Positions 9,994 through 11,643 of a DNA stretch of 64,000 bases are shown here, piece after piece. The position numbers were made by a program, and so were the translations under genes. Each line of letters begins with the position of its first letter. Position 1 is the stretch's first letter. Source of the stretch: Actinomyces bowdenii (GTDB lineage Bacteria > Actinomycetota > Actinomycetes > Actinomycetales > Actinomycetaceae); the NCBI RefSeq assembly GCF_017592395.1, contig NZ_JAGFOU010000019.1, forward strand, positions 1 through 64,000, given 5' to 3'. Below the pieces are notes generated by a model. That model worked only from the letters and a program-made list of their open reading frames with translations, searched no databases and was not told where the DNA came from.

Positions 9994-11643
9994 GTGGCTT
10001 CTTCCACAATGACACGCGAGCGCGCCGAGCTCTCCGACGTCGATGACACCGTTGAGGACGAGGACTTCGACCTCGACGAGGAGGATGACGACAAGGAGGA
10101 CGAGGACTTCGAGGAGGACCCTGAGGACGAGGACGCGCAGGACGAGGACGACCTCGATGACCCCGAGGATGAGGAGGACGAGGAGGACGAGGAGCATGCC
10201 GCCCCGGGCGCCCAGGACGAGGGCCCCGCTCCCGAGCTGCGCGACTACTACCTCGATGTGACCCTGGAGGAGGACGGCGACGGCACCAAGCGCCGCCCCT
10301 TCAACACGGTGGCCTCCCTCAAGGGGGTGCGCCTGGCCCCGGGCGCCACGCTGTTCATCCGCTCGCGCACCGTCGTGGAGGACCTGGAGATCGCCGGGCA
10401 CGGGACCATCGAGGAGCCCATCACCCTGGCCCCCTACGGGCACGGGCCCGTGCCCCGCTTCATCGTGGCCGGCTCCGAGCCCATGGTGGCGCGCGACTAC
10501 CTGGCCCAGAACGGCTACATCTTCCGCGGCTGGGTCATCAAGGGCATCAAGATGCAGCCCTCCATCGCGGCCCTCACCGGCGAGCTGGAGCGCATGCGCC
10601 GCGAGGAGGCCGAGCGGGCGGCCGCCAAGAAGGCGGGCAAGCGCTCGAAGTCCGGCGACAAGGACGGCTCCTTCACCGTCTCGGACACCGATGAGGGCGA
10701 TGAGCCCGCCCAGCGCGTGGTCACCGCGGGCGCCACCGCCGACCCGGTCAAGGACTACCTCAAGCAGATCGGCAAGGTGGCGCTGCTCAACGCCGAGCAG
10801 GAGGTGGAGCTGGCCAAGCGCATCGAGGCCGGGCTCTACGCCGAGCACCTCCTGGCCGAGGAGGGCAACGACCTGCCCGCCAAGCTGCGGCGCGAGCTGC
10901 ACTGGGTGGCCCAGGACGGCCAGCGCGCCAAGAACCACCTCCTGGAGGCCAACCTGCGCCTGGTGGTCTCCCTGGCCAAGCGCTACACCGGCCGGGGCAT
11001 GCTCTTCCTGGACCTCATCCAGGAGGGCAACCTGGGCCTCATCCGCGCCGTGGAGAAGTTCGACTACACCAAGGGCTTCAAGTTCTCCACCTACGCCACC
11101 TGGTGGATCCGCCAGGCCATCACCCGGGCCATGGCCGACCAGGCCCGCACCATCCGCATCCCGGTGCACATGGTGGAGGTCATCAACAAGCTCGCCCGCG
11201 TCCAGCGCCAGATGCTCCAGGACCTGGGCCGCGAGCCCACCCCCGAGGAGCTGGCCGTGGAGCTGGACATGACCCCGGAGAAGGTCGTCGAGGTCCAGAA
11301 GTACGGGCGCGAGCCGATCTCCCTGCACACCCCCCTGGGCGAGGACGGGGACAGCGAGTTCGGCGACCTCATCGAGGACTCCGAGGCCGTGGTGCCCGCC
11401 GACGCGGTGAGCTTCACCCTCCTGCAGGAGCAGCTGCACGCCGTGCTCGACACCCTCTCCGAGCGCGAGGCCGGGGTGGTCTCCATGCGCTTCGGCCTGA
11501 CCGACGGCCAGCCCAAGACCCTGGACGAGATCGGCAAGGTCTACGGGGTCACCCGTGAGCGCATCAGGCAGATAGAGTCCAAGACCATGTCCAAGCTGCG
11601 CCACCCCTCGCGCAGCCAGGTCCTGCGCGACTACCTGGACTGA
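9994..11643 (+). CDS. sigA: Principal RNA polymerase sigma factor (RpoD/SigA family) with odd N-terminal insert
   Basis: The vegetative sigma factor directs RNA polymerase to -10/-35 promoters. The C-terminal part is canonical: region 1.2 begins at [16 protein letters not shown]. Region 2 includes [10 protein letters not shown] and the -10-reading [17 protein letters not shown]. Region 3 follows, and region 4 contains [19 protein letters not shown]. The start GTG 9994 has AAAGGA upstream, giving 549 residues. Residues 15-68 are almost entirely Asp and Glu. Residues about 85-185 are unlike other sigma factors and resemble the N-terminal cap of a pectate-lyase-like beta-helix protein (YYLD..., [24 protein letters not shown]). 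A Lys-rich linker leads to region 1.2. The frame is continuous, so this is not a frameshift artefact. Confidence 0.95.

What the first reader, a model, noticed from the sequence alone, without database searches (positions are those of the whole stretch)
10241..10560. Principal sigma factor carries a beta-helix-like segment before region 1.2
Residues about 85-185 of SigA do not look like any sigma region. Seen in sequence: YYLD..., [61 protein letters not shown]. This order of motifs is that of the N-terminal cap and first turns of right-handed parallel beta-helix proteins (pectate-lyase or chondroitinase-like). It sits after a run of about 50 acidic residues, in an unbroken frame. Inference: a domain was captured or evolved in the position of sigma region 1.1, where it could gate the DNA channel or bind a polysaccharide or protein ligand.
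Basis: partly seen in the sequence, partly recalled or inferred. Interest (0 to 1): 0.75.

Follow-up and report, generated by a model that had tools for sequence, protein, structure and literature searches.

The report
Captured beta-helix module in Actinomyces SigA
In the genus Actinomyces the main transcription sigma factor carries, in front of its normal regions, a small module whose relatives are parts of secreted sugar-cutting enzymes, a surprising domain capture in one of the most conserved proteins of the cell.

Summary
SigA is window 9994-11643 (+), 549 aa. Residues 83-187 (10240-10554) form a conserved ~105-aa module that matches no sigma region, but matches the N-terminal cap and first turn of solved right-handed beta-helix enzymes (GH136 lacto-N-biosidases, PL6 lyases). 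It is not a full beta-helix. The nearest outside relatives found are a same-sized module that follows the F5/8-type-C domain of GH29 alpha-L-fucosidases of Actinomycetales; the alignment runs end to end. All 49 genomes of the genus that were searched have the module in SigA, and all 28 named hosts found are Actinomyces. It is absent from 30 SigA of 20 other genera of the family. The module is under purifying selection and almost free of indels, unlike the acidic tail before it. It sits where other actinobacterial SigA have a disordered N-terminal extension, which published work places near the mouth of the RNA polymerase cleft. Most likely it was captured from a cell-surface glycosidase in the Actinomyces stem lineage and now serves as a folded sigma-N gate or docking module. 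The homology is strong; donor and direction are likely but not proven; the function is inferred. The one predicted structure is of modest confidence.

The parts
9994..11643 (+). sigA, principal sigma factor, 549 aa, GTG start
   Evidence: Regions 1.2, 2, 3 and 4 by Pfam; NCBIfam PRK05901.1-3 790.6 bits, E 9.5e-238
9994..10239 (+). acidic low-complexity N-terminal tail (residues 1-82)
   Evidence: net charge -43; gap fraction 0.46 and median dN/dS 0.57 across 27 sequences
10240..10554 (+). beta-helix-cap module (residues 83-187)
   Evidence: PDB matches, hhalign to fucosidase modules, 49 of 49 genus genomes, dN/dS 0.23
10555..10653 (+). conserved charged helix after the module (residues 188-220, [20 protein letters not shown])
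   Evidence: alignment of 29; helix over segment residues 118-135 in the model, where pLDDT blocks read 45-60
10660..10740 (+). acidic [18 protein letters not shown] motif before region 1.2 (residues 223-249), in kind shared with SigA of other family genera
   Evidence: alignment and reading of other genera
10741..11640 (+). sigma regions 1.2 to 4 (residues 250-549)
   Evidence: Pfam; dN/dS 0.054, mean identity 97%

Best explanation
In the stem lineage of Actinomyces, a ~105-aa beta-helix-cap module of the kind found in GH29 alpha-L-fucosidases was fused in frame into the disordered N-terminal extension of SigA, ahead of the acidic motif that precedes region 1.2. It is now part of the only principal sigma factor found in the genome. 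Most likely it acts as a sigma-N (region-1.1-like) element: tethered by a ~62-residue linker, it sits at the entrance of the RNA polymerase cleft (beta2 / beta'i1), helps keep the cleft closed to DNA until the promoter enters, and offers a conserved face, basic among its invariant charged residues, to RNA polymerase, DNA or the acidic tail. Shown: homology, distribution, constraint. Likely but not proven: fucosidase-type donor and direction. Inferred: position on RNA polymerase and gating. My split: captured folded module ~0.9; fucosidase-type donor ~0.7; gating or docking role ~0.5.
For: PDB matches at E 4e-5, and 6e-15 with a mixed profile of 15 SigA and 8 fucosidase modules. SigA profile against 14 fucosidase modules 99.5% over 105 of 124 columns; against 28 of the 51 full beta-helix caps 98.8% over 75. 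SigA-only HMM scores fucosidase modules higher (n 14, median 39.7 bits) than full beta-helix caps (n 51, median 26.6; p 1.6e-5). An F5/8C match stands just before the module in 14 of 14 hosts (3 below Pfam's cut-off) and an Alpha_L_fucos match in 13 of 14 (1 below). 49 of 49 genus genomes, 28 of 28 named hosts Actinomyces. None of 30 SigA of other genera scores better than E 0.74, positive control 8.5e-67. dN/dS 0.23, gap fraction 0.006. 21 of 105 positions are invariant in 27 SigA yet present in at most 2 of 14 fucosidase modules; they hold 6 K/R and no D/E. RbpA kept in 49 of 49. Published context: Msm sigmaA-N lies between beta2 and beta'i1 and may restrict DNA entry (PMC5511352, section 11 read); Mtb sigmaA 132-179 is needed for transcription (PMC10011835, section 9 read).
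Confidence: 0.6

Rival explanations
1. The module is a protein-docking site for an unknown, Actinomyces-specific regulator (an anti-sigma or co-activator) rather than a gate acting in cis.
For: 21 SigA-specific invariant positions on a shared scaffold fit an interface; the module is absent from the sister genera tested.
Against: No partner is in hand; I looked only at RbpA, which is present, and at the length of the RNA polymerase large subunits.
Confidence: 0.25
2. The module kept a sugar-binding ability and makes SigA respond to a cytoplasmic sugar or sugar nucleotide.
For: Its relatives belong to carbohydrate-active enzymes.
Against: I know of no ligand for the fucosidase module; in the full enzymes binding and catalysis lie on later coils that are missing here (recalled). 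The SigA-specific invariant residues are mostly basic, hydrophobic or Pro, with no obvious sugar site.
Confidence: 0.07
3. The module is a neutral passenger: a stable spacer carried in a permissive N-terminal tail.
For: SigA N-termini vary widely in this family, and two genomes of another genus carry SAP or Rho_N domains there, so the site tolerates insertions.
Against: dN/dS 0.23, nearly no indels, 59 of 105 positions invariant in 27 sequences, while the adjoining tail drifts; kept in 49 of 49 genomes.
Confidence: 0.12
4. The segment is not a folded beta-helix relative; the resemblance is a chance set of Gly/Pro motifs.
For: Modest model confidence; Pfam is silent.
Against: PDB matches from single sequences and from a SigA-only profile, with a clean reversed control; profile match over 105 columns.
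Confidence: 0.04

Closest known systems
Module after the F5/8-type-C domain in GH29 alpha-L-fucosidases of Actinomycetales (no Pfam name found for it)
   Same: Length, order of motifs and both ends; 35-40% identity to the G111 fucosidase copy
   Different: There it stands in enzymes of secreted type beside carbohydrate-active domains; in SigA it is cytoplasmic, with 21 SigA-specific invariant positions
N-terminal cap of GH136 lacto-N-biosidases (PDB 7v6m, 6kqs) and PL6 lyases (7dmk)
   Same: YY..D...GDGT..PF...L..V.L.PG..L.....T......GHGT.E.PI...YG.G..P pattern
   Different: No further coils and no catalytic part; SigA continues into a helix and region 1.2
Actinobacterial SigA N-terminal extension (sigmaA-N of M. 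smegmatis and M. tuberculosis)
   Same: Same position before region 1.2, acidic stretch, then a conserved segment before region 1.2 (PMC5511352 section 11, PMC10011835 section 9)
   Different: Reported as largely disordered there; here a homologue of a folded module is inserted
E. coli sigma70 region 1.1
   Same: Compact N-terminal domain on a linker before region 1.2 (37 residues there by PMC5511352, about 62 here)
   Different: Three-helix fold (PMC5511352); no Sigma70_r1_1 match here

Membership tests
Group 1 (principal) sigma-70 factor | Regions 1.2, 2, 3 and 4 with principal-type sequence | tested here: met
   Pfam and NCBIfam
Group 1 (principal) sigma-70 factor | Only match in its genome to the full-length query | tested here: met
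   1 match in G000 at E 0.001
Sigma region 1.1 (Pfam Sigma70_r1_1) | Sequence match to the region 1.1 family | tested here: not met
   no such family up to E 5
Right-handed parallel beta-helix proteins | Homology to the N-terminal cap of solved members | tested here: met
   reversed control clean
Right-handed parallel beta-helix proteins | Several successive coils (Beta_helix repeat region) | tested here: not met
   no Beta_helix match to SigA; the profile match to full beta-helix proteins stops after 75 columns, and a helix and region 1.2 follow
Right-handed parallel beta-helix proteins | Predicted fold of the segment | tested here: inconclusive
GH29-fucosidase cap module | End-to-end alignment with the module | tested here: met
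   hhalign 105 columns, 99.5%
GH29-fucosidase cap module | Context: directly after an F5/8-type-C domain in a fucosidase | tested here: not met
   SigA has neither domain
GH29-fucosidase cap module | Common origin nested among fucosidase modules | tested here: inconclusive
   nested in the best tree, but a fucosidase-only clade is not rejected, p 0.466
Region-1.1-like gate | Blocks DNA binding of free sigma or occupies the cleft entrance | not testable with these tools
   needs biochemistry or cryo-EM

The most novel reading that the evidence does not exclude
The housekeeping sigma factor of a whole bacterial genus has turned a cell-surface glycosidase module into a folded transcription gate, with a possible second start at Met187 giving a gate-free short sigma, so the cell could make two forms of its only principal sigma.
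Probability: 0.12. Interest if true: 0.88.

Novelty: new variant of a known kind. Interest (0 to 1): 0.7.

Why it matters
Principal sigma factors are among the most conserved bacterial proteins, and the part before region 1.2 in Actinobacteria is usually described as disordered, with a debated role. A genus in which that part holds a homologue of a folded module gives a direct handle on what the actinobacterial sigma N-terminus does: the module can be removed, swapped or visualised by cryo-EM. It would also be a clear case of a carbohydrate-enzyme part recruited into the core transcription machinery.

Tried and rejected
Segment as a known Pfam or NCBIfam domain: none (a PelN match at E 0.19 is not significant). 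Segment as a chance match: disfavoured by the reversed control. SigA of other genera with a diverged copy: 35 genomes chosen by me, 34 with a match, 30 loci (20 genera) fetched; I read up to 230 residues before region 1.2 (L084 was cut short there and read whole) and then scored all 30 whole frames with two profiles, best E 0.74 and 0.75, positive control 8.5e-67 and 1.6e-53. Four of the 34 (G080, G200, G059, G120) were not read. Search depth: order 297 genomes (23 with a match, 7 of them of the genus), class 393 (25), phylum 396 with the SigA-only profile (1, the own genome). Outside places read: 18 of 18, and 28 new loci (one more place had no locus). None of them showed the two sigma motifs that I looked for, within frames partly cut by the 1.5-kb flanks. 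These searches score only the best candidates of a loose first look, so absence is not exhaustive. The short hit in G154 (114-aa frame, L099/L104) looks like chance by eye and was set aside. Loss of RbpA as a reason for the module: rejected. Compensating insertion in rpoB or rpoC: no gross one, by length of match only, in 4 Actinomyces against 8 others. In the mixed-profile PDB search, hits from E 0.015 on (pentraxin PTX3) include chains that are not beta-helices. VIA-align gave no clear fold family; absence there proves nothing. The C-terminal 30 residues alone do not separate the two outside groups. Papers: the searches listed no paper whose title or abstract start concerns this module; only open-licence papers are held, so this is weak evidence that it is unpublished. 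I read section 9 of PMC10011835, section 11 of PMC5511352 and section 24 of PMC12000874, saw the abstract or passages of these three, and of the other papers only listings.

Full report
What is there. SigA is encoded at window 9994-11643 on the + strand. It has sigma regions 1.2, 2, 3 and 4 and is the only match of its genome to the full-length query at E 0.001. In front of region 1.2 (residue 250) lie, in order: an acidic tail (1-82), the module (83-187), a charged helix (188-220) and an acidic motif [18 protein letters not shown] (from 223).

Is it real homology. The segment alone hits solved beta-helix enzymes in PDB: 7v6m at 4.2e-5, 6kqs at 6e-4, 7dmk at 1.1e-3. The same three chains lead with a SigA-only profile (1.5e-4, 2.1e-4, 2.6e-3) and with the A. 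vulturis copy alone (1.2e-3, 6.8e-4, 0.01). A reversed copy gives nothing better than 0.53. A profile of 15 SigA and 8 fucosidase modules reaches 6.1e-15 on 7v6m. Pfam has no family for the segment at E 5.

Distribution. In 213 genomes of the family, 67 have a match to the segment: 49 of 49 in the window's genus at 76-100% identity, and 18 of 164 elsewhere with E-values of 4.9e-15 or weaker. In 47 of the 49 the module and the sigma regions lie in one reading frame: 38 genomes read, 4 more by full-length match, 5 more. In G012 SigA is split between two frames and in G016 it ends at a contig end. A named-genome scan found 28 loci, all Actinomyces (oris, naeslundii, israelii, bovis, vulturis and others), and region 1.2 follows the module in all 28. 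Thirty SigA of 20 other genera of the family lack it; most have lysine/alanine/threonine-rich and acidic tails. A phylum-wide search with the SigA-only profile found only the own genome among 396 at E 1e-12.

Nearest relatives. The best outside match is G111 (40% over 101 aa, E 4.9e-15), in a GH29 alpha-L-fucosidase with a signal-peptide-like start and cell-wall binding repeats. I gathered 14 such modules, from three families of the order. An F5/8-type-C match stands just before the module in all 14; in L160, L165 and L172 it is below Pfam's cut-off. An Alpha_L_fucos match is in the same frame in 13 of 14 (below cut-off, 4.8e-4, in the fragment L172); the fourteenth, L160, has F5/8C and SLH only. 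One host lies in the window's own genus (G009, L105). I assigned modules to this group by reading them and then checked by Pfam. The 51 full beta-helix proteins share the cap and then read on as coils. SigA against the 14 fucosidase modules aligns over 105 columns at 99.5%, against 28 of the 51 full beta-helix caps over 75 at 98.8%. A SigA-only HMM scores the fucosidase modules higher (medians 39.7 and 26.6 bits, p 1.6e-5), with overlap: BH_L179 scores 46.7, third of all. Many of both sets were fetched with a profile that held fucosidase modules. The tree of 91 rows and 118 columns places SigA (26 rows, 100/100) inside the fucosidase modules, with all full beta-helices on the far side of one branch (100/97). 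But a fucosidase-only clade is not rejected (p 0.466), in which case the unrooted tree does not say which group is nearest, and the tool warns of few columns and long branches. Direction is argued from distribution: the fucosidase module occurs in three families of the order, the SigA one in a single genus.

Selection. Across 27 SigA sequences (351 pairs, of which 328 to 344 were usable per region) median dN/dS is 0.57 in the acidic tail, 0.23 in the module, 0.25 in the helix and linker, and 0.054 in regions 1.2-4; the gap fraction is 0.46 in the tail and 0.006 in the module. Two of the 28 named loci were left out: A. ruminis (L141), whose frame ends early, and the MAG L147, which runs off the contig. 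The tail's value rests on a poor alignment. Of 105 module positions, 59 are invariant: 15 shared with at least 70% of fucosidase modules (fold), 23 intermediate, and 21 SigA-specific by identity (at most 2 of 14). The SigA-specific set has 6 K/R and no D/E, though at one of these (R123) most fucosidase modules have Lys. Over all charged positions, counted by hand, 9 of 13 basic and 3 of 13 acidic are invariant (Fisher p 0.047), a modest signal chosen after seeing the data.

How it may work. The published M. smegmatis structures place the sigmaA N-terminal helix between beta2 and beta'i1 and suggest that sigmaA-N restricts DNA entry; the authors doubt that it ever enters the cleft (PMC5511352, section 11 read). 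In M. tuberculosis, deletion of 132 N-terminal residues is tolerated and deletion of 179 is not, while no deletion changed promoter binding by SPR (PMC10011835, section 9 read); its authors speculate about a region-1.1-like role (passage seen). In M. tuberculosis sigmaB, region 1.1 occupies the downstream DNA channel (PMC12000874, section 24 read). By distance from region 1.2 alone, Mtb residues 132-179 would correspond to about 156-203 here, the end of the module and the helix; no alignment was made. I infer a gate or docking role at the cleft entrance; no result here tests it. RbpA is retained in 49 of 49 genomes, and rpoB and rpoC show no gross genus-specific insertion by match length in 4 Actinomyces against 8 others.

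A possible short form. Met187 is invariant in 27 of 27, with AAGG a few bases upstream in all 27. Codon preference explains most of this (AAG is 96% of Lys codons and GGC about 69% of Gly codons in the same set), so it is a lead only.

Verdict. The module is a real, lineage-defining addition to a core protein, most likely a capture. Known kinds on both sides (principal sigma, beta-helix cap) make it a new variant of a known kind. Identity is strong, donor and direction likely, function open.

Noticed in passing
L085 and L088 (SigA of G217 and G213, genus g52): These SigA carry SAP and Rho_N type helical domains at the N-terminus (Pfam SAP 3.3e-9 in L085, Rho_N 7.6e-15 in L088), a second kind of domain at the same place in the family.
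   Followed up: partly
window 10540-10554: AAGGGCATCAAGATG inside sigA: a Shine-Dalgarno-like AAGG before invariant Met187; could start a 363-aa SigA without the module.
   Followed up: partly
L150 (Actinomyces vulturis): Its SigA keeps a lysine-rich stretch at the N-terminus as in other genera, besides the module.
   Followed up: no
L160:2020-3957 (G446): An open frame with a weak F5/8C match, the cap module and SLH but no fucosidase domain; it may be a broken fucosidase gene.
   Followed up: no
G012 SigA (C6:18663-20296): SigA is split between two frames in this draft genome (82% complete), possibly an assembly error.
   Followed up: no
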